Positions 1 through 10,341 of a stretch of DNA of 53,050 bases are shown here, one piece after another. The number at the start of each line of letters is the position of its first letter. Positions within the stretch are counted from its first letter, which is position 1. Location of the stretch: positions 1 through 53,050 of IMG/VR virus record IMGVR_UViG_3300005095_000123. One strand, given 5' to 3'. Origin of the DNA: a virus. Under the pieces are notes generated by a model, which was not told the DNA's origin, did no database searches, and worked only from the letters and a program-made list of their open reading frames with translations. A program made the position numbers and the translations under genes.

Positions 1-40
1 GCCCGCCCTCCCCTATGATGGCCAGGGGGCCTATACCTAG
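1..40 (+). CDS. 3' end of the gene that runs off the right edge (if circular)
   Basis: If the last base of the window is joined to the first, the reading frame of the gene starting at 52869 stays open for twelve more codons and ends at TAG (38-40). The stop lies inside a hairpin, as expected at an operon end. This depends on the contig being circular or terminally redundant, which the sequence alone cannot prove. Confidence 0.45.
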   Translation, partial: PALPYDGQGAYT

Positions 41-45
41 GCCCC
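26..45. terminator. Hairpin between convergent transcripts
   Basis: GGGGCCTA and TAGGCCCC form an 8-bp GC-rich stem with a TACC loop. It lies where the rightward right-end operon (across the junction) and the leftward operon ending at 143 converge. No clear T-run follows on either strand, so it may be a processing or attenuation hairpin rather than a strong intrinsic terminator. Confidence 0.4.
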
Positions 46-75
46 GCCGGCCTCTTCTTAACTTGTCCGAAAAAT

Positions 76-91
76 TTCCAAACGTTTGGAA
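76..91. repeat. Genome-wide 16-bp palindrome, copy 1
   Basis: Perfect copy of TTCCAAACGTTTGGAA, intergenic, flanked by AT-rich bases. It lies between the ends of the two convergent operons. See copies 2-12 and the finding on this motif. Confidence 0.95.
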
Positions 92-142
92 TGTTACTAT
101 TGTCGCTATCGTGCCAAGTAGGAGTTCGGTTTGGATTTAACT

Positions 143-559
143 TTAGTCCGCCGGGCGGGCTATGAGAATGTCGTCCGTGCATAGAAGGAGGGCCGGGCCG
201 GTCGTCGCCTCTATGAGGCCGGGCTTGCCGGACACCGTTACCTTTACCGGGGCCGTCGGACGGCAGGTAGTAAGAACCCTGGCCCCGGCCATGACCTTCA
301 CGTCCCGCCCGCCGTTTACTGTGCAAAGCCTAAGATCCCCTACCTGCTTAGAAGAAAAAGGAATACAACACCTCTCTCCGAAAAACGTCTTCTCGCAGGT
401 CTTCTCCGGCGTGGCCGTGAAGTCGAAGAACGTGTTTCGATAGAGCACGGTCCACGGCCCGGCCAGGTCCGTTACGTCAAAGGAGAATACCTTTACCACC
501 AAAGCCATCAACAAAACGAAGAGAATCATGATAACCATGAACGTGACCTTCCTTCTCAT
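143..559 (-). CDS. Membrane-anchored hypothetical protein
   Basis: A 138-residue protein, last gene of the leftward left-end operon. After a basic MRRK start, residues 7-26 form a long hydrophobic segment (signal anchor or uncleaved signal). The rest is a soluble domain rich in Val, Thr and Cys (two adjacent Cys near residue 64, others at about 55, 79, 99 and 127), which suggests disulfides outside the cytoplasm. The start is well supported: AAAGGAGG lies 6 bases before the ATG. It is separated from the other leftward genes by the 1-kb repeat array, so it may have its own promoter, which I could not identify. No family recognised; a surface or superinfection-exclusion role would be a guess. 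Confidence 0.75.
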   Translation of the reverse strand: MRRKVTFMVIMILFVLLMALVVKVFSFDVTDLAGPWTVLYRNTFFDFTATPEKTCEKTFFGERCCIPFSSKQVGDLRLCTVNGGRDVKVMAGARVLTTCRPTAPVKVTVSGKPGLIEATTGPALLLCTDDILIARPAD

Positions 560-615
560 AAAGCCTCCTTTATTTTTTGGTAACGCTCGTGCATCATGGG
601 TTGCTATCTGCGCTC

Positions 616-1612
616 GGCACGCTTATCTATGTAGGATTTCTTTAGTCTAGCGGCCCGCTTCCTCTTTATGGGCCTCTACTTGTCGCCAGGCCCGCTAATA
701 TATAACGGGTTGCTTCAAAGGTTCGGCCCGCTTGCTATAAATGGGTGCCTGCATCACTTCGGCACGCTTTAAAGCGCGTGGTCTCCTCTTACATAACGGC
801 TCGCTAATGAGAATAGGGTTTCTTTAGGATATTGGCCCGCTAAACCTTTTTGGTCTCCTTACTTAGATTGGGCTCGCTACCTGAAATCTGGAGGCTCAAT
901 CCCACCGGCACGCTGTTTACCCAAGGACTCCTCGCATCGTAGCGGCACGCTGGTCAAGCATAGGGCGTCTCCCGATCTTCGGCTCGCTTGGTCCGTGCGG
1001 ACTGCTAGGACTTAACGGCCCGCTAAAATAACTAGGTCTTCTCAAATTCAGCGGCACGCTAAATAGCATACGGGCTACTTGATTCCCACGGCCCGCTCGG
1101 AGAAGCAGGGTATCTAAATTCTGGCGGCCCGCTAGTCAAAGAGCGGATTGCTTAACTTCCATGGCTCGCTTTTTCCGAAACGGGTTACTTAGTTTCCATG
1201 GCACGCTTCTCTACATAGGGAGTCTAAATCGAAACGGCTCGCTATGCCAATCGGGTCCCTTACATTCCACAGCTCGCTTTGTAAACTCCTGGTAGCTTGA
1301 TTTCCAAGGCCCGCTTCTGTAAACCGGTCATCTAAAGTTTAACGGCTCGCTCCGGCCTTTTAAGGGTAACTTGGCACCGACGGCCCGCATCTGTCCCTTT
1401 GGTTTACTCTACTAAATAAGGCACGCTGGGTCACCGTCGGCCTCCTTTTGCCTTTAGGCACGCTAGATATTGTCGGTTATCTTTGTGGCCCGTCGGCTCG
1501 CTTTTTGTCGTAGGTGGTCTAGCGCACAACGGCCCGCTATGATCTGTCGGTTATCTTCGAGAAGCGTGGCCCGCTTCAACATAGCCGGTCCTCTACCCTC
1601 TCTCGGCTCGCT
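616..1612. repeat. 28-unit degenerate array, period about 36.6 bp
   Basis: GGCNCGCT (N = A, C or T; two units have one mismatch) occurs 28 times, starting at 616, 652, 689, 725, 761, 798, 834, 871, 907, 944, 981, 1017, 1053, 1090, 1126, 1163, 1200, 1236, 1271, 1308, 1344, 1382, 1420, 1457, 1495, 1531, 1568 and 1605. Steps are nearly always 36-37 bp, mean 36.6. About midway between neighbours sits a weaker GG-N4-CT box, so the GG..CT scaffold recurs about every 18.3 bp with strong and weak boxes alternating. Bases between boxes are unrelated from unit to unit. The period is not a multiple of three, and no gene or credible ORF fills 560-1635. An array of protein-binding sites (partition centromere, packaging site or iterons) is the most natural reading; it is not CRISPR, because the conserved part is only 8 bp. 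Confidence 0.9.
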
Positions 1613-1635
1613 CTTTTCGGTTGGGCACCTGAATA

Positions 1636-1776
1636 CTAGCGGCGCTTCTTTTTCTTTCGCTTCATAGTCTTGACCTTGGCCTTCGACCAAAGTCTCTTAC
1701 CCTTCTTCGTTCTCTTACTCCTTAACAGGGCAACCGCCTTCGTCCGCCCTCCACGAGGGCCTTCCTTCTCCTTTAT
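1636..1776 (-). CDS. Lys/Arg-rich open frame following an in-frame UGA
   Basis: Directly after the TGA (1777-1779) of the preceding 43-residue gene, the same frame stays open for 46 codons to TAG at 1636-1638. The translation is strongly basic and ends in a run of Lys and Arg, like the other two small proteins of this cluster. It has no ATG, GTG or TTG start near its beginning; the only ATG is ten codons before the end. It may be the C-terminal half of a UGA-readthrough product, a separate gene with an unusual start, or a decaying gene. A purine-rich AAAGGAGAAGGAAGG lies just after the TGA. Confidence 0.4.
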   Translation of the reverse strand: MKEKEGPRGGRTKAVALLRSKRTKKGKRLWSKAKVKTMKRKKKKRR

Positions 1777-1908
1777 TCAAACAAGAACTTTTCGTCCCGG
1801 CTTCTTCGGAACGTCAACGTAGCGGTAGTCCTTACAGCCCCGACGAGTGGCTAGCTTCTCCCTTACATATTTGCCCGTCTTGTAGCGGTAGTATTTTGTT
1901 GTCGCCAT
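1777..1908 (-). CDS. Small basic protein (43 residues)
   Basis: Starts at the ATG of a TAATG overlap with the upstream 86-residue basic protein, so it is probably translated by coupling; GAGGAAGAAGAAG precedes it. The 43 residues are rich in Lys, Arg and Tyr (start MATTKYYRYKTGKYV, end PKKPGRKVLV) with a single Cys. No family recognised. With its neighbours it forms a run of small basic proteins next to the TerS-like gene, so nucleic-acid binding (genome condensation or packaging) is plausible but inferred. Its stop is UGA and the frame continues open and basic for 46 codons. Confidence 0.6.
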   Translation of the reverse strand: MATTKYYRYKTGKYVREKLATRRGCKDYRYVDVPKKPGRKVLV

Positions 1909-2168
1909 TACTTCTTCTTCCTCTTCTTATTTGCCTTTAGAAACTTGGCCGCAAGATTCGCCCTCTTCCTGGTCTTAGGGTTGGGAGATCTCTTACCCTC
2001 TTCGATGCACTTCCACGTCACCTTCTTGTAGCCTTTACGCTGACAGTAGCGCCGGAAAGCTCCCTCGGTCCCCTTGCGCTTGATCTCCTCCTTTACTTCC
2101 TGCATCCACTTCTCTTTACTCTTCCGGCTTGACCTCGATGACCGGCGGGTCTTTTTTCGTTGGGCCAT
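1908..2168 (-). CDS. Small basic virion/DNA-binding-like protein
   Basis: An 86-residue, Lys/Arg-rich protein. AAGGAGGA seven bases before the ATG at 2168 fixes the start. The N-terminal 20 residues are an Arg/Ser/Lys tail. The core has a recognisable pattern, KWMQEVKEEIKRKGT then FRRYCQRKGY, VTWKCI, and TRKRANLAAKFLK near the C-terminus. Short proteins with a similar order (KW.Q, G..F..YC...G, VT..CI, TR.RA..A) occur in tailed phages and large DNA viruses without a settled function; I give this from memory, not from a search. It overlaps the end of the TerS-like gene by 53 bases and is coupled to the next gene through TAATG. Confidence 0.7.
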   Translation of the reverse strand: MAQRKKTRRSSRSSRKSKEKWMQEVKEEIKRKGTEGAFRRYCQRKGYKKVTWKCIEEGKRSPNPKTRKRANLAAKFLKANKKRKKK

Positions 2169-2637
2169 TTCCGTCCTCCTTCGGTCCTTTTCCTCTATCT
2201 TGCCCGTCATCGGCCAAGCCTTCAATCTGAAACACGACCAGGTTTTGCTGGCCGCCTGCCTGCTTCTCACGTAGGAGCCCCTCTATCTTGGCCAGGAGCT
2301 CAAGCGCTTGAATCTTCTCCTGGGGCTTCGTCTTCGGATTCTCTACGATCCGCCGAATCTCCGTTACGAAGTAGTCCTTGCTTACGTTCTGCCGAAGCAC
2401 TATCACTTCCCGGTCGAGGGCGATGGCCTTCTTTACGATCTCCTCTTGGAGCCACTTTAGGGCTGTGGCCCGGCGGACGCCGGCCACCTTGCAAGCCTTG
2501 CTCAGGTCCCCGCCGGTGATCGTAAGGGCTCGGACGAAGGCCCGCTTCTTCTTGCCGAGCCTACGAAAGACCTTCTCCCGCTCTACGAGAGCATCTACTA
2601 TCTCAGTCGGCGCAAGGCTCGTTGGCAATGACGACAT
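2116..2637 (-). CDS. Terminase small subunit-like protein
   Basis: A 173-residue protein with an N-terminal helix-turn-helix region (residues 28-60: AFVRALTITGGDLSKACKV, then RATALKWL), followed by a helical segment (EIRRIVENPKTKPQEKIQALELLAKIEGLL) of the kind seen in small terminases, and an acidic/Pro-rich tail. Small terminases bind the packaging site as a ring and hand DNA to the large subunit. The start at 2637 has AAAGGAG at good spacing and overlaps the AAA+ gene by 35 bases. It lies about 8 kb from the large terminase gene but only 0.5 kb from the 28-unit array, which could be its binding site. Alternative: a transcriptional regulator with a similar HTH. Confidence 0.6.
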   Translation of the reverse strand: MSSLPTSLAPTEIVDALVEREKVFRRLGKKKRAFVRALTITGGDLSKACKVAGVRRATALKWLQEEIVKKAIALDREVIVLRQNVSKDYFVTEIRRIVENPKTKPQEKIQALELLAKIEGLLREKQAGGQQNLVVFQIEGLADDGQDRGKGPKEDGNGPTKKDPPVIEVKPEE

Positions 2638-4003
2638 AGCCTTTCTCCTTTATGAGAGCATAGGTCCCCTGATCCATTTGAACGACTGGCGTGATCTTTC
2701 TCATCGCATCCGAGATGGCCTGCGTCAAATTGGCCCTCTTTGTCATTATCGCATCGAGTATTCCGTCGTTGATGGCCTGCTCTATCTCCGCCCCTGTGAG
2801 GGATTCGGAGACGGCCACCAATGCCTCCACGTCTATCTGGTCCCGCTTGGCCTTCGGAAGATTAAGGGCCTTGAGCTTTATCTTGATGATCTCCTCCCTC
2901 TCCGAGGCGAAAGGTGCGTCGAGAAAGAAGATCTTATCAAGACGACCGGCCCGTAAGAGCTCCGTGGGAATACGTGTGAAGTCGTTAGCCGTGAAGATGA
3001 AGAAGACCGGGGCCTGTGTCTCCTGCATGAAGAATAGGAGTTGCGAGAGCATCCGGGCCATGACCCCGGGATTGCCCATCGAATTGTAGCCGGAAAGCTC
3101 CTTCTCCACCTCGTCTATAAGGACTACACACTCGCCGACCCGCTCTATCGTAGAGAGGGCCTGGCGGAGATTGCTCTCTGAGTTCCCTATGTAGGGATTG
3201 AGCAAGGCCCCTATATTCAAGTGGAGAAGGGGCCGCCCTAGTTCATTAGCCACGGCCTTGGCCGAAAGAGTCTTTCCCGTCCCCGGCCATCCAGAGAGGA
3301 GCATCCCTCTCGGAGGCTTTAGTCCTAGCTTCCGCAATCTTCCGAAGTTCTTGAAGTAGAACTTGACCTTCTCGATATACTTCTTGAGTCTAGGAAGCCC
3401 GCCTATGTCGGAGAGCGTCACGTCAGAGCGGATCGTGTTAAGCAGACGGCTGGCATGAATTATCTTCTCCTTGGCCGTGCGCAGGATCTCCGGGTCGTTC
3501 TTGACAAGATAGATCGCCGTGATGCTCTCGACTTCCGTAAGGGAAAGTCCTACCAGCTCTCGGGCTATCTCCTCCGCCGTCTTCTTGTCTAAAGCAAACC
3601 CATCCTTTATATATGCGACGATTTCTTCCTCGGTCGGCGGAGGAAGTTCGTAGGAGACGAAGAGCGTCTCGGCCCCCTTCGGTAGCTCCATACCTATGTT
3701 GACTATATGGGCGTGCTTGCCACGGGCCTTACGGTAGAACTCTATGAGCCCCGGCCCGCCCTTCAAATTGTAGGTGATTACGGCACACGGGGCCTTGCGC
3801 AGGGCCTTGATGATAAAGTCGTCGTCAACGAACAGAGGATCACGACCACCGTCCACGCACTCGAGTCCGCCTTTGGTCATGAAGTAAACAGAGCCCATAG
3901 ACACGGCCTCGAAGGCTTCTCTTACTTTCTGTTCTGCGTGGATCGGATCTGCCGTGAATATCTGGATTAGCGGACAATCAGCCTTGAAGAATTGCTCTAA
4001 CAC
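2603..4003 (-). CDS. AAA+ ATPase
   Basis: A 466-residue ATPase. The N-terminal half (1-200) has a Rossmann-like pattern without a P-loop. The C-terminal half is a classical AAA module: Walker A GWPGTGKT at about 239-246, Walker B VVLIDEVE at about 293-300, a sensor segment FIFTANDFTRIP, and an arginine-finger-like LLRAGRLDK at about 350, followed by a helical lid. It resembles the FtsH/proteasomal-ATPase type of remodelling ATPase, but no protease domain is attached. The start is GTG at 4003 with GGAGG six bases upstream, inside the end of the RHH gene (26-base overlap). Placed between TerS-like and RHH genes, it may remodel a DNA-protein complex or the head; substrate unknown. Confidence 0.85.
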   Translation of the reverse strand: MLEQFFKADCPLIQIFTADPIHAEQKVREAFEAVSMGSVYFMTKGGLECVDGGRDPLFVDDDFIIKALRKAPCAVITYNLKGGPGLIEFYRKARGKHAHIVNIGMELPKGAETLFVSYELPPPTEEEIVAYIKDGFALDKKTAEEIARELVGLSLTEVESITAIYLVKNDPEILRTAKEKIIHASRLLNTIRSDVTLSDIGGLPRLKKYIEKVKFYFKNFGRLRKLGLKPPRGMLLSGWPGTGKTLSAKAVANELGRPLLHLNIGALLNPYIGNSESNLRQALSTIERVGECVVLIDEVEKELSGYNSMGNPGVMARMLSQLLFFMQETQAPVFFIFTANDFTRIPTELLRAGRLDKIFFLDAPFASEREEIIKIKLKALNLPKAKRDQIDVEALVAVSESLTGAEIEQAINDGILDAIMTKRANLTQAISDAMRKITPVVQMDQGTYALIKEKGYVVIANEPCAD

Positions 4004-4571
4004 CTGCGCCCTCCTTTTCTTCCTCCCTTATCCCGGCCAGATAGGACGACACGGCCCGGATGATCGCCTCCTTCCTCGACAAGTCGAGCTCCTCGGCGAG
4101 CGAGTCTATCAGCTCGGCCTCGTCCTGCGTAAGAGTGAGCGACATTCGGACGAAACCGTCTTTCTTCTCTCCGTAGTTTACTTGGAGCCAATTCTTGAAC
4201 TCCGCATAAGACATCTCTCTTGCGAGATGCAACATCTTATCCAGCTCCTCTCTTACGAGATGGATCTTCCCAAGGACGACCGCCGCCTCCTTGAACTTCG
4301 TCCAGTTTATTTCTTCAAGGTCTTTCGGCGTCAGTCCGTAATCACGCATTATCTCTCCGATCTTTACCATATACATGAAATACGAATACGACACCGGTAG
4401 CTGAAGCTCTACATATTCCCTGATCGTGTCGTAGCCCATCGCCCTCCATCCACCAAGCGAATAGAAAGCATAGGCGATCTGTGCTTTTTGATACCACGCC
4501 TTTGTTTCTATACGCATTACTTCTTTGAGCTTATCGCTAAGTGTTATTGCATTGTTCGTCTTGTCCGCCAT
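3978..4571 (-). CDS. Protein with C-terminal ribbon-helix-helix-like domain
   Basis: A 197-residue protein. The first 140 residues are helical and rich in Tyr/Trp (KAWYQKAQIAYAFYSLGGW, then YDTIREYVEL); this part resembles plasmid and phage proteins that scan helical repeats, but I cannot name it. Residues about 140-180 (RMSLTLTQDEAELIDSL, then LSRKEAIIRAVSSYL) fit a CopG/MetJ-type ribbon-helix-helix: one beta strand that enters the major groove and two helices. Such domains serve as repressors or centromere-binding adaptors and bind tandem sites. The start has GGAGG eight bases upstream. It is overlapped by the AAA+ gene, and the 28-unit array lies in the same leftward operon region, so it is a candidate array-binding protein (inference). 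Confidence 0.65.
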   Translation of the reverse strand: MADKTNNAITLSDKLKEVMRIETKAWYQKAQIAYAFYSLGGWRAMGYDTIREYVELQLPVSYSYFMYMVKIGEIMRDYGLTPKDLEEINWTKFKEAAVVLGKIHLVREELDKMLHLAREMSYAEFKNWLQVNYGEKKDGFVRMSLTLTQDEAELIDSLAEELDLSRKEAIIRAVSSYLAGIREEEKEGAGVRAILQG

Positions 4572-4592
4572 CTTGTCCTCCTACCAATTCAT

Positions 4593-5042
4593 TCAAAATT
4601 CATTCAAAATTCTTTCAGCTTGTCTTCTATCTAGCAAAGGGAATACCGTTGACTCTACGATAGAGAAGTCGAACATGGACGCCAGATGGTCGAGCGAGCT
4701 GTATATGTCTCTCAACCCGTGGTAGATAATGAACTCGATGAATCTGTCGTCAACAGTCCTGCGTAGGCAAAATAGAGTCTTTCCGTCAGGCGTCCAAAAC
4801 AGCTTGTTGCATTTCTCCGTGTGGCAAAAGTTCTTTTTGATTAGACGCTTGATTATGTTCCTGGTAAGCGTCGCCGGCGACACGGCCCGCCGAATGTCAA
4901 CCGGCTTCCCGTTTATGATCCCGAACTCCACGAATCCTATCTTGAACAGCCGTCCGGGGGCCTTCTTTCGGTAGGGCTGTTCCTCGCACACCATGGCCAC
5001 GGTGTCCTCTGATAGGCGTGGGTCGAGGACGACTGTGGTCAT
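4593..5042 (-). CDS. Hypothetical protein (149 residues)
   Basis: No family recognised. The start at 5042 (MTTVVLDPR) is chosen because it lies just after the stop of the upstream gene; an alternative GTG lies nine codons upstream, and GGAAGG sits about 20 bases from the ATG. Residues 60-85 contain CHTEKCNKLFW and a TPDGKTLFCL strand, possibly a small metal or beta-ribbon motif. The C-terminal 50 residues are helical. The last codons contain a short tandem repeat (ATTCATTCAAA twice, about 4587-4610), unusual within the window and next to the ribosome site of the following gene. Confidence 0.6.
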   Translation of the reverse strand: MTTVVLDPRLSEDTVAMVCEEQPYRKKAPGRLFKIGFVEFGIINGKPVDIRRAVSPATLTRNIIKRLIKKNFCHTEKCNKLFWTPDGKTLFCLRRTVDDRFIEFIIYHGLRDIYSSLDHLASMFDFSIVESTVFPLLDRRQAERILNEF

Positions 5043-5052
5043 CACGGAGAGA

Positions 5053-5439
5053 CTATTTCCTTCCACGCCCGGCCCTCCTGCGGTAGGCAATGAACGCCAG
5101 GCACCCGGCACCTACGAGAATAAGAGTAGGCGGGGCCGGGACCGGTGCGGTCTCAGGCTCGTCATTTCCAAACGTTTGGAAATTTCCGAATCTGTTCGGC
5201 GAGAATCCGTAGGCCCGGCGGTGGCAGGACGAACACTCCGTCCATCTGGGACAATGATTAATTCCGAACAGAAACTCCCTAGTAGGATTGGGATTGATCT
5301 CTATAGCCAGCGTAGATAGAGCGTTGCCGAGGAGCCACTCCACGGCCTTGGCGTTCTCCTCCACTCCGCCGGCCACCGAAATCTCGCTATATAATAGAAG
5401 GATTGCAAAAATCATGCCTAACGCTTTTTTAATTCGCAT
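5053..5439 (-). CDS. Secreted protein with CxxCH motif and PEP-CTERM-like tail
   Basis: A 128-residue protein with three export-related features. Residues 1-23 form a signal peptide (basic start, hydrophobic core, SVAGG cleavage-like site). Residues 69-73 read CSSCH, the c-type haem attachment motif. The last 30 residues read VPAPPTLILVGAGCLAFIAY followed by an Arg/Lys cluster, closely resembling a PEP-CTERM sorting tail (VPxP, hydrophobic helix, basic end). A copy of the genome palindrome encodes NFQTFG at 87-91. The protein could be a membrane-attached mono-haem protein, or the CxxCH could be a metal site or chance. It overlaps the upstream gene by 22 bases. The function for a phage is unknown; the tail would need a host exosortase to be meaningful. 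Confidence 0.6.
   Translation of the reverse strand: MRIKKALGMIFAILLLYSEISVAGGVEENAKAVEWLLGNALSTLAIEINPNPTREFLFGINHCPRWTECSSCHRRAYGFSPNRFGNFQTFGNDEPETAPVPAPPTLILVGAGCLAFIAYRRRAGRGRK
5166..5181. repeat. Genome-wide 16-bp palindrome, copy 2
   Basis: Perfect TTCCAAACGTTTGGAA inside the CxxCH/PEP-CTERM-like gene, read in frame as F-Q-T-F-G. Symmetry extends outwards as ATTTCC...GGAAAT. Confidence 0.95.
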
Positions 5440-5777
5440 AAGCGTCTCTCTATCTCCTCTTTGATTTTTTTCTTTGGGATGTTTACGAGATCGAAGAAGA
5501 CGAGATCATCAATCTTCTTCGATAGTCCTTCTATCTCCCAGAATAGGCGGCGACGGTGGTTCTGATAGAACGGCGATTCGCCCGTCTCCTCCAGATACTC
5601 GAGGTCCTGGAAGACGGACAAGACCACCGCATTGACGAGCTTCTTGACACGCTCCACGTCCTCCTTCGGAGGAGTGTGCCGTTGATGCCACTCATAGAGG
5701 ATCGGCACCCACGACCGAAAGGAGAACGGGTCGTCGGAGAACTTACCTTCCTGGTAGAACTTCTTGATGATGCTCAA
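5418..5777 (-). CDS. Hypothetical helical protein (119 residues)
   Basis: Starts at TTG (5777) within a TTGA overlap with the upstream stop, the TTG counterpart of the ATGA overlaps common here; no ATG is available nearby. It is mostly helical and charged, with an early FSFRSWVPILYEWHQRH segment and a Lys-rich C-terminus. No family recognised. It is translated between the short early gene at 5774-6004 and the exported protein at 5053, with overlaps on both sides, so it belongs to the same leftward early operon. Confidence 0.65.
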   Translation of the reverse strand: MSIIKKFYQEGKFSDDPFSFRSWVPILYEWHQRHTPPKEDVERVKKLVNAVVLSVFQDLEYLEETGESPFYQNHRRRLFWEIEGLSKKIDDLVFFDLVNIPKKKIKEEIERRLCELKKR

Positions 5778-6004
5778 TGAATGGCCTCCGAGTTCTCAAG
5801 CGAAGCCTTGGTCTTTTCAAGATCGAGGAACTCTCGAACCATCATAACGGCAAGGGGCATGATGTCCTTATCCCGGGCACCTGCACGGCAAATAAGAAAC
5901 AGGGCCGCCGCAAACAGCTCATCCCCAGAGAGCTCCTCCGGCTCGTCTATGCGGACAACGACGTGATCGTCCTTCTTCTCCGTGTAGAGCGTGATTCTCT
6001 TCAT
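5774..6004 (-). CDS. Short early protein (76 residues), first gene of left operon
   Basis: The first gene after the leftward promoter at 6024-6052. The start is at 6004, not the longer in-frame GTG upstream, because AAAGGAGG lies 6-7 bases before this ATG and the promoter overlaps the longer version. The protein begins with a strand pattern (MKRITLYTEKKDDHVVVRI) followed by helices containing an AAALFLICRAG segment. No family recognised. Its position directly behind a sigma70-like promoter that shares an upstream 16-mer with the right-end operon suggests early expression. Confidence 0.65.
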   Translation of the reverse strand: MKRITLYTEKKDDHVVVRIDEPEELSGDELFAAALFLICRAGARDKDIMPLAVMMVREFLDLEKTKASLENSEAIH

Positions 6005-6023
6005 GTCGCCCTCCTTTCGTGAT

Positions 6024-6052
6024 CTTCTACCACGGGAGAGGACAAAAGTCAA
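6024..6052 (-). promoter_or_regulatory. Sigma70-like promoter of left operon
   Basis: Leftward TTGACT (6047-6052), a 17-bp spacer, then TAGAAG (6024-6029). It sits 20 bp before the start codon at 6004 and is preceded upstream by the 16-bp element at 6060-6075 that also precedes the right-end promoter. Confidence 0.6.
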
Positions 6053-6059
6053 GGAAATG

Positions 6060-6075
6060 CAAGAACTTTCTGCGG
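6060..6075 (-). promoter_or_regulatory. Shared upstream promoter element, copy 1
   Basis: Read leftward: CCGCAGAAAGTTCTTG. The identical 16-mer lies at 51708-51723 in the same orientation to its gene. Here it ends 7 bp before the -35; at the other locus it overlaps the -35. Likely an operator or activator site (inference). Confidence 0.65.
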
Positions 6076-6138
6076 AAGGCCGGCGTCGCCGGCGGCTACT
6101 GTTTGAAGGCGGTAGTGGGCGAAACCCTGTTTTCTTTT

Positions 6139-6165
6139 ATTACTGATTCCGAAGGAATCAGTAAT
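6139..6165. repeat. Perfect 12-bp inverted repeat with GAA/TTC triloop
   Basis: ATTACTGATTCC and its exact complement are separated by only GAA (top strand). It abuts the next hairpin (6166-6186) and lies at the downstream end of the structured RNA region. It could be a second leftward terminator or RNA end-protecting hairpin, or a single-stranded DNA structure: a GAA triloop closed by C-G is exceptionally stable in ssDNA. Confidence 0.85.
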
Positions 6166-6582
6166 AAAAATGCCGAAGGCATTTTTATTTCGGAGTTTTC
6201 TATGTCTGATTTTCAGACGGACTTCTCCTTAAATCCCCCTATTGGATTGGTCGCCGAAGGCGACCTGGATGGTGGTTTCTACCAACCCCGAAGGCACGTT
6301 GAACTCGCTCGTTATGCCCTACCGGACACCCGGTTACCGTCGGTTGCCTCTACCGAGGCAACACGACTAAAAGCCTAGGGAGGAGTCGCAAGGTTTCTCT
6401 ATCTCTCTAAAAACCAGGGAAGGCATCTTGCGGGCGATCACCAGTAGGCAAGGCCCTACTGGTGAGCAAGGCCCGTAAGTGGGAGGGTTACAGAACCGTA
6501 AGGCTAAACGACATCGGTAAGGCTCTACAAGGCAGGTAGGCTCTTCCTCTATCCCCCTTCCCTCACCCTCCTCCCCCACCCA
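6166..6582 (-). ncRNA. Candidate structured non-coding RNA, about 415 nt
   Basis: A leftward RNA would start near 6582, after a promoter with consensus hexamers. It opens with a very G/A-rich leader (about 6582-6540). Hairpins follow: TCACCAGTAGG with its complement (11 bp, about 6439-6466); CGCAAG/CTTGCG enclosing GGTTT/AAACC; GTTGCCTC/GAGGCAAC within GTCG/CGAC (about 6339-6367); ACCGG/CCGGT; GGTCGCC/GGCGACC with a 3-nt loop (about 6249-6265); GTCTGA/TCAGAC with a 3-nt loop; and finally AAAAATGCC/GGCATTTTT with a 3-nt loop (6166-6186), which looks like an intrinsic terminator. GCCTTRC/GCCTTCGG boxes recur. Frames crossing it lack ribosome sites. I do not recognise a known class (no tmRNA, RNase P or group I hallmarks). 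The true 3' end could be further left, beyond the 6139-6165 hairpin. Confidence 0.6.
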
Positions 6583-6587
6583 CCACC

Positions 6588-6615
6588 ATTATACAGGCGA
6601 AAAATACCTTGTCAA
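6588..6615 (-). promoter_or_regulatory. Perfect-hexamer sigma70 promoter, leftward
   Basis: On the minus strand TTGACA (6610-6615), a 16-bp spacer, and TATAAT (6588-6593): both hexamers match the consensus exactly. No start codon with a ribosome site follows for over 500 bp, so the likely product is the structured RNA. It would be the strongest recognisable promoter in the window. Confidence 0.8.
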
Positions 6616-6619
6616 GTCC

Positions 6620-6669
6620 GAAATTCGGCGATTATAGCTGATTATTTTACTTTCGCTTAGCCGAATTTC
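6620..6669. repeat. AT-rich stretch with 10-bp inverted repeat
   Basis: GAAATTCGGC (6620-6629) and GCCGAATTTC (6660-6669) flank a 30-bp AT-rich loop. The surrounding 6600-6745 is the most AT-rich non-coding DNA in the window. With the HU-like gene and hairpin cluster beside it, it could be an unwinding element of an origin; alternatively an operator above the RNA promoter. Confidence 0.5.
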
Positions 6670-6749
6670 TTTTTTCTAACTTTCTTGTAGAAAATTAACT
6701 ATTGTAGGATAAAGGCAAATTCACCGTATTTTTGTTTTCGATTGGGTCG

Positions 6750-6765
6750 TTCCAAACGTTTGGAA
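6750..6765. repeat. Genome-wide 16-bp palindrome, copy 3
   Basis: Perfect TTCCAAACGTTTGGAA, intergenic, between the AT-rich stretch and the terminators behind the HU-like gene. Confidence 0.95.
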
Positions 6766-6774
6766 ATAAAAAAT

Positions 6775-6801
6775 GGGGAGCCGTCGGGGCGTCGGCTCCC
6801 C
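6775..6801 (-). terminator. Leftward intrinsic terminator (third of three)
   Basis: GGGGAGCC/GGCTCCCC (8 bp) followed on the minus strand by ATTTTTTATTT. The last of three stacked hairpins downstream of the HU-like gene. Confidence 0.75.
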
Positions 6802-6857
6802 ATGAGGAAGGAGGCGAGGAGGTTTGGTATGTCGAGGAAGTGTCTATGCAAAAGTTA

Positions 6858-6878
6858 GGCCCGCCGGGGAGGCGGGCC
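6858..6878 (-). terminator. Leftward GC-rich hairpin (second of three)
   Basis: GGCCCGCC/GGCGGGCC stem with a 5-nt loop, followed on the minus strand by TAACTTTTGC. The T-run is short, so it is a weaker terminator. Confidence 0.5.
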
Positions 6879-6940
6879 TAGTTGGGTAGGGGAGGGATGG
6901 AGGACACGGGGCTATGTTCCTAGGCTAGCAAATAAAAAAG

Positions 6941-6963
6941 GCCCCCGCCACAATGACGGGGGC
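6941..6963 (-). terminator. Leftward intrinsic terminator of the HU-like gene
   Basis: A 10-bp stem (GCCCCCGTCA with TGGCGGGGGC, one G-T pair) and 3-nt loop, followed on the minus strand by CTTTTTTATTT, 30 bp after the HU stop codon. Confidence 0.85.
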
Positions 6964-6992
6964 GAGGTGCCATGCCGTCGGCTTGTTGACAC

Positions 6993-7304
6993 TTAGAGGT
7001 ATTTACGCAAGACCCTTGACGCCTTGAATCCGATCGTCCTGTAGGGCTTTACCTTTTGGACTCCGCCCGTCAAGGGAGTCTTGACAGTCTTCCTTCTATA
7101 CTCCCGGGGGTAGAACTTACCAAACTTCGGGATTTTGATTTGGGCGCCCTCCTCTATGATCTTCTCCTCTACCTTGTTAATGAACATACGAATGATGGCG
7201 TTCACGGCCTTGGTGGTGACGCCGAGAGCCTTGTTATGGAGCTTGGTCTCCTCGGCGATCTCTCGGGCGATGTCAGTTATGGTGTAGGATTTTTGCTTGC
7301 TCAT
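6993..7304 (-). CDS. HU/IHF-family DNA-bending protein
   Basis: A 103-residue member of the bacterial histone-like family. The N-terminal helices (ITDIAREIAEET, then AVNAIIRMFINKVEEKI) and the strands KIPKFGKFYPREYRRKTV match HU/IHF. The usual arm-tip RNP is replaced by KTPLTGG, and the C-terminal helix (FKASRVLRKYL) is typical. Such proteins bend DNA in replication origins, recombination or packaging complexes. The start at 7304 is supported by AAAGGAGGA eight bases upstream; the longer in-frame version would include its promoter. It is a monocistronic leftward gene with a promoter carrying a 12-bp inverted repeat and three downstream terminators, so it seems insulated from its neighbours. 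Confidence 0.9.
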   Translation of the reverse strand: MSKQKSYTITDIAREIAEETKLHNKALGVTTKAVNAIIRMFINKVEEKIIEEGAQIKIPKFGKFYPREYRRKTVKTPLTGGVQKVKPYRTIGFKASRVLRKYL

Positions 7305-7332
7305 GTCGTCCTCCTTTCCGTTTGTGTGCTCT

Positions 7333-7361
7333 ACTTTACCTGTAAGTTCTAGATCTATCAA
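7333..7361 (-). promoter_or_regulatory. Promoter of the HU-like gene
   Basis: Minus strand TTGATA (7356-7361), a 17-bp spacer, then TAAAGT (7333-7338), 28 bp before the start codon. One arm of a 12-bp inverted repeat fills the spacer and the other lies just upstream of the -35. Confidence 0.65.
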
Positions 7362-7381
7362 CAAAAATAAGAACTTACAGG
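7339..7381. promoter_or_regulatory. Candidate operator: 12-bp inverted repeat
   Basis: CCTGTAAGTTCT (7339-7350) and its exact complement (7370-7381) are 31 bp apart centre to centre, about three helical turns, and bracket the -35 of the HU promoter. They also lie upstream of the divergent rightward operon. The arm core AAGTTCT recurs in the shared 16-mer at 6060 and 51708, suggesting the same or a related regulator. Confidence 0.65.
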
Positions 7382-7388
7382 GAAGGGC

Positions 7389-7416
7389 TTGCATCCGTCG
7401 AAAAAGCCGTTAAACT
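7389..7416 (+). promoter_or_regulatory. Possible promoter of the long rightward operon
   Basis: TTGCAT (7389-7394), a 16-bp spacer and TAAACT (7411-7416), 30 bp before the start at 7447. It is a modest match, proposed mainly because a rightward operon must start here. Confidence 0.4.
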
Positions 7417-7446
7417 TTCAGGGGAAAACAAGAATAGGAGGAGACG

Positions 7447-7722
7447 ATGGAGCCTGCATTTTTGTTTGTATTTACGTGTTTTGGGGCGTTTGCGGGGCAA
7501 GTTAATTTGGATCACACAAATAATGATGAGCTAGTGTTGGATAATCCGGCCATAATAATGTTACGTGTGGGTCGGTCTGAAATTTTGCCTATAGGAAAGA
7601 CCCGTCTCCATATTTCAAGGAGACAGATAATCGGACAATGCAATATGCCCGAGGACGTGGAAAAGCAGTATCGCATGGAGCTGTTGGGGCTTAAAGGAGG
7701 AGCTAATGGTCATAGGAAGTAA
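7447..7722 (+). CDS. Hypothetical protein (91 residues)
   Basis: The first gene of the long rightward operon. AGGAGGAG lies 4-6 bases before the ATG. Its hydrophobic N-terminus (PAFLFVFTCFGAFAG) could be a signal or membrane segment; the remainder is soluble. The codons are visibly AT-richer than in the following genes, which may mark a recent acquisition. It ends 17 bases inside the dCTP deaminase gene and supplies that gene's ribosome site (AAAGGAGG). No family recognised. Confidence 0.6.
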   Translation: MEPAFLFVFTCFGAFAGQVNLDHTNNDELVLDNPAIIMLRVGRSEILPIGKTRLHISRRQIIGQCNMPEDVEKQYRMELLGLKGGANGHRK

Positions 7723-8230
7723 GCGCATCGAGCACCTTCTAGATATTGGCGTCTTGGTCATCAATCCCCGACCAAGGCCGGAGGCCATTCAGCCGGCCTC
7801 AGTTGACCTGCGACTCGGAGACCAGTTCCGGGTTATCTCCAAGAACGGGTCTATTATCGATCCATCTAAAGGAGCGGCATACGAAGAGGTCTCCGGGGTA
7901 TCTGAGTTCGTCCTCTATCCCCAAGAATTTTGTTTGGCCCACACCATAGAGGAGATAAAACTCCCTGTGGAGTTGATGGCCTCTCTCGAGGGGCGATCCT
8001 CTATCGGCAGGATGGGTCTATTCATTCACAACGCCGGCCACGTTGATCCCGGGTTTCACGGGCAGTTGACCCTGGAACTGTTCAACGCCGCCCCGGTTCC
8101 TATTCGCCTCTATCCCGGGATGCGTATTTGCCAGATAGTTTTTCAAGAGGTGAAGGACGCCCACTTCTATCGAGGAAAGTATCTCGGACAAAGAGGGGCG
8201 ACGCCGAGTAGGATATACAAGGACTTTTAA
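7706..8230 (+). CDS. dcd: dCTP deaminase family protein
   Basis: A 174-residue enzyme of the Dcd/dUTPase trimer family, converting dCTP to dUTP (or, in bifunctional members, to dUMP). Signatures: QPASVDLRLG (29-38), EGRSSIGR (95-102) at the nucleotide-binding site, HVDPGFHGQLTLELFN (112-127) with E124 in the catalytic-base position, PGMRICQI (138-145), and a C-terminal YLGQ..ATPSR that closes over the triphosphate. The family's usual length is about 170-195. The gene would feed dUTP/dUMP for dTTP synthesis. This is notable because the phage DNA polymerase carries a uracil-glycosylase domain. Start ATG at 7706 has AAAGGAGG upstream. I cannot tell mono- from bifunctional by eye. Confidence 0.9.
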   Translation: MVIGSKRIEHLLDIGVLVINPRPRPEAIQPASVDLRLGDQFRVISKNGSIIDPSKGAAYEEVSGVSEFVLYPQEFCLAHTIEEIKLPVELMASLEGRSSIGRMGLFIHNAGHVDPGFHGQLTLELFNAAPVPIRLYPGMRICQIVFQEVKDAHFYRGKYLGQRGATPSRIYKDF

Positions 8231-9367: not shown

Positions 9368-9698
9368 TATTTGGGATTTTCCCGCCGAGTTCGAGGGGGC
9401 GGTGATCGTCCACGAGAAGCAACGGGCGATCGCCTCTATTCCGGCCAAGTTTTATCGCAAGGGGCCTACGCTCCGCATTGTCCTCGAGAAGGACTGGGAA
9501 GGAAAATTCGGGAAGGAGAAGCTCTATCTCGGTATTAAATACCATGACGGTTTCCGCCCGTTTTTTATCCATCTCCTCGGGCGACCAGGAGACCGTCTGT
9601 TGTTGAAAAAGGATTTTGCGATAGTCACGGCCTCGGACGAGGCCGGAGTAAACCTATTAGATATAAAGGAGGGCACGGGAGATGAACGGAAGACTTAA
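9345..9698 (+). CDS. Hypothetical protein (117 residues)
   Basis: No family recognised. The sequence alternates strands and turns (AVIVHEKQRAIASIPAKFY, then LRIVLEKDW, KLYLGIKYHDGF), suggesting a small beta-barrel or beta-sandwich. It overlaps the endolysin gene by 23 bases and the following IS110-like gene by 17, so it is certainly part of the rightward operon. Confidence 0.65.
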   Translation: MPKLSVCDIWDFPAEFEGAVIVHEKQRAIASIPAKFYRKGPTLRIVLEKDWEGKFGKEKLYLGIKYHDGFRPFFIHLLGRPGDRLLLKKDFAIVTASDEAGVNLLDIKEGTGDERKT

Positions 9699-10341
9699 AA
9701 TCTTGACCAGTCTGCACTTTCAGGTCCAAAAGAACCGCATTCGCTTCAACAACGCATCAAAGGCGTTGGAGCGGGAAGGGCTCGGAGACGAGCGTGTGAG
9801 GGAGATTTATGAGGCGATCATTGACGACCTTCTACGGGCCGAGCGTGAAATTCAAGAAGAGATGATGATAGAGCTCAATGAAGAGGAGATCTATACCGAG
9901 TGGCTCAAGAAGGTTAAGGGTGTCGGACCCGTGATGGCGGCTTGGCTGGTAGGCTGGCTCGACCCGGAGAAGGCCGACACCGTGTCGGCCTTTTGGAAGT
10001 ATTGTGGCCTGCACGTGGAGGACGGACAGGCCCCCCGCCCCCGCAAGGGACAAAAGATAAACTGGAACCCGAAGCTCAAGGCCAAGTTGATGGGAGTGTT
10101 GGCGCCGTCATTCCTGCGGTCGAAATCTCCCTACGCCGACTTCTACTATCAATACAAGGAGAGGAAATTAAACCTGGGATGGAAGGAGGGTCATGCGCAT
10201 TTTGCGGCCCTTCGTTACATGGTAAAACAGTTCCTCAAGGATTTGTGGGTTACGTGGCGGGAGATGCTCGGTCTTCCCGTGCGCCCGCCCTACCACGTGG
10301 AGAAGCTCGGCTTGCACGATCACGCCCCGAAAGTGGCATGA
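9682..10341 (+). CDS. IS110-type transposase C-terminal-domain-like protein
   Basis: A 219-residue protein. Residues 78-93 (VKGVGPVMAAWLVGWL) and the following FWKYCGL, KLKAKLMGVL, SPYADFYYQYKE and HAHFAALRYMVKQFL match the order of the Transposase_20 domain that forms the C-terminal part of IS110/IS116/IS902 recombinases (a helix-hairpin-helix-like region). The N-terminal RuvC-like DEDD domain of those enzymes is absent; residues 1-75 are a helical coiled region instead. So it is probably not an active transposase but a phage protein using the same fold, perhaps to bind structured DNA. No terminal repeats flank it. It sits between lysis genes in an intact operon. Confidence 0.65.
   Translation: MNGRLKILTSLHFQVQKNRIRFNNASKALEREGLGDERVREIYEAIIDDLLRAEREIQEEMMIELNEEEIYTEWLKKVKGVGPVMAAWLVGWLDPEKADTVSAFWKYCGLHVEDGQAPRPRKGQKINWNPKLKAKLMGVLAPSFLRSKSPYADFYYQYKERKLNLGWKEGHAHFAALRYMVKQFLKDLWVTWREMLGLPVRPPYHVEKLGLHDHAPKVA

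What the first reader, a model, noticed from the sequence alone, without database searches (positions are those of the whole stretch)
616..1612. 28-unit binding-site-like array with a 36.6-bp period and alternating strong and weak boxes
GGCNCGCT recurs 28 times at 36-37 bp, with a weaker GG-N4-CT box halfway. Only these boxes are conserved; everything between differs, so it did not arise by recent duplication and must be maintained by selection on box and spacing. 36.6 bp is about 3.5 helical turns, so neighbouring strong boxes face opposite sides. It occupies 1 kb of otherwise gene-free DNA in a very compact genome.
Basis: seen in the sequence. Interest (0 to 1): 0.92.

Follow-up and report, generated by a model that had tools for sequence, protein, structure and literature searches.

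The report
Phage array of 29 split guide RNAs
The 1-kb repeat array is not a set of protein-binding sites but a bank of 29 short two-part guide RNAs of the recently described TIGR-Tas kind, used by a small phage protein (encoded 8 kb away) that probably binds matching DNA; the system type is known, but what such phage-encoded, nuclease-less versions target is still an open question.

Summary
The array is real, far beyond chance, and slightly larger than described: 28 strong and 29 weak boxes at 584-1644, i.e. 29 units of 36-37 nt. It is a dual-repeat TIGR (tandem interspaced guide RNA) array. The same two-box, 36-nt architecture with unrelated spacers occurs in about 110 other viral loci; where a Tas gene is present the array lies within 1 kb of it, and the box reads AGCG-N-GCC on the Tas strand (68 of 68). 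In the window the guide strand is therefore the minus strand: edge repeat AGCGNGCC, spacer A, loop repeat AG-N4-CC, spacer B. The cognate protein is encoded at 9682-10341 (+): a 219-aa solo Nop-domain protein (TasA) whose sequence and predicted fold match solved TasR and TasH, with no nuclease domain. The centromere/packaging/helical-phasing reading is not supported: a related phage keeps the TerS-like, AAA+ and RHH genes but has neither array nor TasA. Unusual here: the array is 8 kb from tasA in an oppositely oriented gene block, and its loop repeats are the least conserved of 55 comparable arrays. No self-targets and no convincing outside targets were found. Known kind, new member; target and role remain open.

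The parts
584..1644 (-). Dual-repeat TIGR array, 29 units of 36-37 nt (edge AGCGNGCC / spacer A / loop AGN4CC / spacer B); 28 full edge repeats, half-edges at both ends
   Evidence: strand from 68/68 homologous loci
1641..1644 (-). 5' truncated edge repeat (CGCC on minus strand), start of the pre-tigRNA array
   Evidence: sequence; [quoted passage not shown]
584..587 (-). 3' truncated edge repeat (AGCG on minus strand), end of array; no terminator seen, followed within about 28 nt by the start of the next minus-strand gene
1605..1612 (-). First full edge repeat on the guide strand (AGCGAGCC); processing expected at AGCG|NGCC
   Evidence: cut position inferred from PMC12045711
1623..1630 (-). 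First loop repeat on the guide strand (AGGTGCCC)
9682..10341 (+). tasA: 219-aa solo Nop-domain protein, expected effector that binds the tigRNAs; no nuclease domain
   Evidence: phmmer to TaTasR 9mty E=9.6e-27 and TasH 21kl E=2.2e-17; AlphaFold2 pLDDT 94, Foldseek top hits TasR/TasH; only Nop hit in the window, open frame starts at 9667 so nothing is fused upstream
143..559 (-). Gene directly downstream of the array on the guide strand (138 aa, hydrophobic N-terminus, unknown); flank, not part of the system
2116..4571 (-).

Best explanation
The array is a dual-repeat TIGR array of 29 guide units, transcribed leftward (minus strand) and expected to be cut in the middle of each edge repeat (AGCG|NGCC) into 36-37-nt tigRNAs: NGCC - spacer A - AGN4CC - spacer B - AGCG. 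A dimer of the phage's own TasA (9682-10341) should hold each RNA through the AG (box D) and CC (box C) motifs of the two repeats, with the extra C3-G6 pair marking the edge repeat. Spacers A and B (about 9 nt each, anchored at box C) would then pair with opposite strands of a DNA target 5'-B + rc(A)-3'. As TasA has no nuclease, I infer that it occupies and bends the target and so blocks transcription or replication of another mobile element or of a host gene. Shown here: array architecture, guide strand by homology, the TasA gene and its fold, absence of a fused nuclease, absence of self-targets. Taken from the paper: processing, RNA binding and two-strand targeting, shown there for other Tas proteins. 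Inferred only: that this array and this TasA work together, and the silencing role (about 0.45 on its own; the stated confidence is for the identity as a TIGR-TasA guide array).
For: Unit anatomy equals the published one: two alternating 8-nt repeats, ~9-10-nt unique spacers, 36-nt period, half-edges at both ends. A pattern scan for three strong boxes brought in 120 stretches of viral DNA; 110 loci carry parsable two-box units, 1212 units in all, with consensus edge AGCGAGCC and loop AGN(3-4)CC/CCA and different spacers. 75 of the 110 also encode a Tas homologue, always within 1 kb, and in 68 of 68 scorable loci on the strand that reads AGCGNGCC (same by tblastn, 66/66). The isolated Microcystis phage Mvi-JY20 has the same arrangement, TasA followed by a GCGAGCC / CGAAACCC array and a terminator. 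The window encodes exactly one Nop protein, matched by sequence to TasR and TasH and by fold to their cryo-EM structures. No self-target above mispaired-spacer controls, as expected for guides against other DNA.
Against: The array is not next to tasA (8.0 kb, in an oppositely oriented gene block), unlike all 75 loci where both were found (within 1 kb); cognacy rests on tasA being the only Nop gene in the window. There is no terminator after the array. Loop repeats are unusually degenerate (0.28 bits per inner column against a median of 1.40), which could mean a decaying array, although box C/D bases and unit length are intact in nearly all 29 units. No genuine target was found. Expression and processing cannot be seen from sequence.
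Confidence: 0.93

Rival explanations
1. The boxes are DNA-binding sites for a phage protein (RHH, TerS-like or AAA+), forming a centromere or packaging site phased on the DNA helix.
For: Iterated boxes at near-constant spacing, with TerS-like, AAA+ and RHH genes next door.
Against: The same array type occurs in about 110 viral loci, beside Tas genes. A related phage contig keeps TerS, AAA+ and RHH homologues but has no array. The period equals a processed tigRNA. The RHH gene has its own operator-like repeat (4586-4617), and a separate dispersed palindrome is a better candidate genome-wide site.
Confidence: 0.03
2. It is a TIGR array, but a decaying or orphan one, no longer used by the distant TasA.
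For: Unlinked from tasA, lowest loop conservation of 55 arrays, no terminator.
Against: All 29 loop units keep AG at the start and C at position 7 of the box, 26 of 28 edges are perfect, and unit length is held at 36-38. Random decay would hit the boxes as often as the loop interior. Arrays about 5-9 kb from the Tas gene also occur in contig IMGVR_UViG_3300041409_000460.
Confidence: 0.12
3. Same machinery but a regulatory role: TasA-tigRNA complexes control the phage's own genes or genome arrangement.
For: TasA lacks a nuclease; the paper lists gene regulation and integrase aid as possible roles.
Against: No tigRNA matches the window better than mispaired spacer controls (best 16 of 18, same as controls), nor do 1241 pooled units match their own loci above controls.
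Confidence: 0.12
4. CRISPR or mini-CRISPR array carried by the phage.
For: Unique spacers between repeats; non-coding.
Against: Repeats are 8 nt in two alternating classes with ~10-nt spacers, unlike the 25-36-nt repeats of CRISPR; no Cas effector or adaptation gene was seen among the window proteins scanned (the one Cas4-like hit is a PD-(D/E)XK nuclease in the replication block); no Rfam match in 1-2700.
Confidence: 0.01

Closest known systems
TIGR-TasA dual-repeat systems (Faure et al. 2025, PMC12045711; e.g. Flavonifractor plautii FpTIGR)
   Same: Alternating edge and loop repeats, ~9-nt spacers, 36-nt unit, truncated edges at the array ends, solo Nop-domain effector
   Different: Array 8 kb from tasA and oppositely oriented to it; 29 units (most often 5-15 in the paper); loop interior almost unconserved; no terminator after the array
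TaTasR (PDB 9mty) and TasH of Salicola phage CGphi29 (PDB 21kl, 9w04)
   Same: Nop domain homologous over residues 48-213 (TasR) and 11-210 (TasH); TM-score about 0.7-0.8 on the query
   Different: No RuvC or HNH nuclease; repeat boxes AG...CC instead of TasR's UG...CCA
TIGR locus of Microcystis phage Mvi-JY20 (PP438412)
   Same: TasA homologue (39.7% identity over 65%) with the same array class (GCGAGCC edge, CGAAACCC loop); an isolated phage
   Different: Array directly downstream of tasA with a terminator and about 9 units; loop mostly conserved
IS110-family recombinases with bridge RNA (IS621 8wt6/8wt9, ISCro4 9t56)
   Same: Same Nop-like RNA-binding domain (Foldseek TM 0.61-0.64 on the query)
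   Different: No DEDD recombinase domain, no transposon, array rather than a single bridge RNA; the weak Pfam Transposase_20 hit is this shared domain, not a transposase

Membership tests
TIGR-Tas (dual-repeat) | Two distinct alternating 8-12-nt repeats separated by ~9-nt (up to 12) spacers | tested here: met
   8-nt edge and 8-nt (two of 7 nt) loop, inter-box lengths 9-12
TIGR-Tas (dual-repeat) | Unit length about 36 nt | tested here: met
   36-38 nt, mean 36.6
TIGR-Tas (dual-repeat) | Box motifs shared between edge and loop repeats; extra pair in the edge repeat only | tested here: met
   both AG...CC; C3-G6 in the edge only (it does not vary, so there is no covariation evidence)
TIGR-Tas (dual-repeat) | Unique spacers | tested here: met
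   no duplicated spacer 9-mer
TIGR-Tas (dual-repeat) | Nop-domain Tas protein in the same genome | tested here: met
TIGR-Tas (dual-repeat) | Array begins and ends with truncated edge repeats | tested here: met
   CGCC at 1644-1641 and AGCG at 587-584 on the minus strand
TIGR-Tas (dual-repeat) | Array upstream or downstream of, and close to, the tas gene (typical, not defining) | tested here: not met
   8.0 kb apart; 22-877 bp in 68 other loci, none above 1 kb in 75
TIGR-Tas (dual-repeat) | Rho-independent terminator after the array (typical, not defining) | tested here: not met
   no minus-strand terminator-like site in 1-2700
TIGR-Tas (dual-repeat) | Processing to 36-nt tigRNAs bound by Tas and guiding DNA binding | not testable with these tools
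   needs RNA sequencing and biochemistry
TasA (versus TasR/TasH) | Solo Nop domain, no N-terminal nuclease | tested here: met
   219 aa, all-helical model, open frame begins 5 codons before the start
RHH/ParR centromere or terminase pac site | Array retained with the RHH/TerS/AAA+ genes in related phages | tested here: not met
   the relative keeps the genes, has no array
CRISPR array | One class of 25-36-nt repeats, Cas genes | tested here: not met

The most novel reading that the evidence does not exclude
The guide bank has been uncoupled from its effector gene: a long array placed in a different transcription unit, on the opposite strand, with loop interiors freed from nearly all conservation, serves TasA in trans. 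That would mean TasA reads only the AG/CC boxes and unit length, that guide dose can be timed separately from the protein, and that arrays diversify by a route other than copying whole units.
Probability: 0.3. Interest if true: 0.6.

Novelty: new member of a known kind. Interest (0 to 1): 0.45.

Why it matters
TIGR-Tas is a recent RNA-guided system whose natural targets, array growth and (for TasA) mode of action are stated as open by its discoverers. This phage gives 29 natural guides with a nuclease-less effector of only 219 aa and an array whose degenerate loops act as a natural mutagenesis experiment: what is still conserved (AG, CC, the edge pair, 36-nt length) is probably what TasA needs. 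The roughly 110 loci gathered here also fix the guide strand for this repeat class and give 1212 guide pairs for target searches.

Tried and rejected
Protein-binding or packaging array: rejected. Coding tandem repeat: rejected, stops in all frames and a non-triplet period. CRISPR: rejected. Self-targeting: 29 guides against the window in both spacer orders with gaps 0-3, no excess over A(i)/B(j) mispaired controls; 1241 pooled guides against 1.22 Mb of loci, no excess. Targets in two related phages: none above controls. Exact 9+9 targets of five guides (units 1, 4, 12, 18, 25) in IMG/VR: 3, 1, 0, 1 and 13 stretches; where inspected (units 1, 4, 25) they are scattered contigs or copies of one sequence (9 of the 13 for unit 25), so not distinguishable from chance. 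Shared spacers with other arrays: one 9-mer, 0.5 expected. DNA relatives of window 1-8000 in named phages: none. TasA-bearing mycobacteriophage KyMonks1A: no dual-repeat array seen by eye upstream of its tasA. Rfam: nothing in 1-2700. My first assumption that the + strand was the guide strand was wrong and was corrected.

Full report
OBSERVATION. The array exists as described and a little beyond. On the + strand, GGCNCGCT occurs 26 times exactly at 36-38-bp steps between 616 and 1612, plus two copies with one mismatch, 28 in all; weaker GG-N4-CT boxes sit halfway at 17-20-bp steps. Half boxes at 584-587 (CGCT) and 1641-1644 (GGCG) extend it to 584-1644, 29 units of mean 36.6 nt. Chains of GGN4CT at 17-20 bp reach 20 members here; the longest in 100 shuffles was 4. 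No spacer repeats and no frame is open across it.

WHAT IT IS. A scan of viral contigs for three strong boxes at 36-37 bp returned 120 stretches. Parsing gave 1212 two-box units in 110 loci, with different spacers everywhere and one consensus: AGCGAGCC alternating with AGN(3-4)CC or CCA when read on the opposite strand. [quoted passage not shown]

STRAND. In the loci with a Tas homologue, the array reads AGCGNGCC on the Tas strand in 66 of 66 cases by tblastn and 68 of 68 by profile. In Microcystis phage Mvi-JY20 the array follows tasA and ends at a terminator in the same direction. In the window the guide strand is therefore the minus strand, the same as the flanking genes 1777-4571 and 143-559.

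THE EFFECTOR. The window encodes one Nop-domain protein, 9682-10341 (+), 219 aa. Pfam and PHROGs name it IS110 transposase-like, which reflects the shared RNA-binding domain. By sequence it matches TaTasR (9mty, E 9.6e-27, residues 48-213) and TasH (21kl, E 2.2e-17). A 38-sequence alignment gave an AlphaFold2 model with pLDDT 94, and Foldseek puts TasR and TasH structures in the first eleven places, IS110 recombinases next. The open frame begins 5 codons before the start codon, so no nuclease is fused: it is a TasA.

WHY NOT A PROTEIN-BINDING ARRAY. The nearest relatives found are a 17-kb fragment (TerL 62%) and a 60-kb contig binned as a Cloacimonadota MAG (MCP 56%). The latter keeps TerS-like, AAA+, RHH, terminase, portal, capsid and replication homologues but no Tas and no array. 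The array is thus an accessory of this phage, not part of its packaging or partition set. The 36.6-bp spacing is explained by RNA length and needs no helical phasing.

WHAT IS UNUSUAL. (1) Array and tasA are 8.0 kb apart and oppositely oriented; in 75 other loci where both were found the distance is below 1 kb. 35 array loci showed no Tas in the DNA fetched, and contig IMGVR_UViG_3300041409_000460 has arrays about 5 and 9 kb from its detected Tas gene, so distal arrays are uncommon rather than unique. (2) The loop interior carries 0.28 bits per column against a median of 1.40 and a minimum of 0.60 in 55 arrays, while AG and CC are kept. [quoted passage not shown] it also suggests that the units are old. 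(3) 29 units is at the upper end; the paper gives 5-15 as most common. (4) Edge position 5 varies (A, G, T), and the first spacer base after CC is almost never C.

TARGETS. From the 8-nt 3' overhang reported for TasR I derived the target order 5'-B + rc(A)-3' and tested the other order too. No self-target exceeded A(i)/B(j) mispaired controls in the window, in 1.22 Mb of pooled loci or in the two related phages. Five guides scanned against IMG/VR gave hits not distinguishable from chance. Spacer GC is 41% against 55% for the window; across 64 loci spacer GC tracks contig GC (r 0.74, mean offset -0.08), which would fit targets that share the host's composition.

MECHANISM. Most likely: leftward transcription, mid-edge cleavage by a host RNase in the presence of TasA, loading on a TasA dimer, two-strand pairing with a DNA target, and blockage without cleavage. 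Shown: array, strand, effector, fold, absence of a fused nuclease, absence of self-targets. Taken from the paper for other members: processing, RNP, two-strand targeting. Inferred: cognacy of the distant pair and the silencing role.

VERDICT. A real feature with a known explanation: a new, unlinked and loop-degenerate member of the TIGR-TasA systems.

Noticed in passing
window 76, 5166, 6750, 10640, 15507, 22545, 26220, 30249, 34666, 44932, 47650, 52842: A perfect 16-bp palindrome TTCCAAACGTTTGGAA occurs 12 times exactly, dispersed over the genome both between and inside genes (mean 0.38 matches expected even with 3 mismatches allowed). The related phage contig QMNM01000001 lacks it but has its own 14-bp palindrome TGAAAACGTTTTCA 16 times, with the same AAACGTTT core. 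Looks like a genome-wide operator or parS-like site that co-evolves with a conserved binder (RHH protein?).
   Followed up: partly
window 4586-4617: Three direct copies of the 11-mer AATTCATTCAA directly upstream of the RHH gene start (4571), an operator-like site.
   Followed up: no
L132 6329-11709: In the related 17-kb fragment the terminase large subunit and portal ORFs are interrupted relative to the window (795 and 997 aa against 635 and 672), consistent with inteins.
   Followed up: no
window 48259-48475: Low-complexity tandem repeats (60-bp and 15-bp units) inside the gene 48152-49168, whose protein has an AT-hook match.
   Followed up: no
L133 8476-8810 (PP438412): Isolated Microcystis phage Mvi-JY20 carries an unannotated TIGR array of about 9 units with a terminator right after its TasA gene; with a known host it is a good system for target searches.
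   Followed up: partly
L134 5435-5767 (MN369760): 76 Mycobacterium phage records match the TasA query; in phage KyMonks1A the 330-bp gap upstream of the gene shows inverted repeats by eye rather than a dual-repeat array, possibly a stem-loop TIGR array.
   Followed up: no
IMGVR_UViG_3300041409_000460 (L058, L029, L080): A viral contig with several TIGR arrays spread over more than 10 kb and one detected Tas gene.
   Followed up: partly
spacers of all array loci: tigRNA spacers are purine-rich on the guide strand (A 32%, G 28%, pooled over spacers A and B). As A and B pair with opposite target strands, this would point to a constraint from the RNP rather than coding-strand bias if it holds for each spacer class apart.
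   Followed up: no
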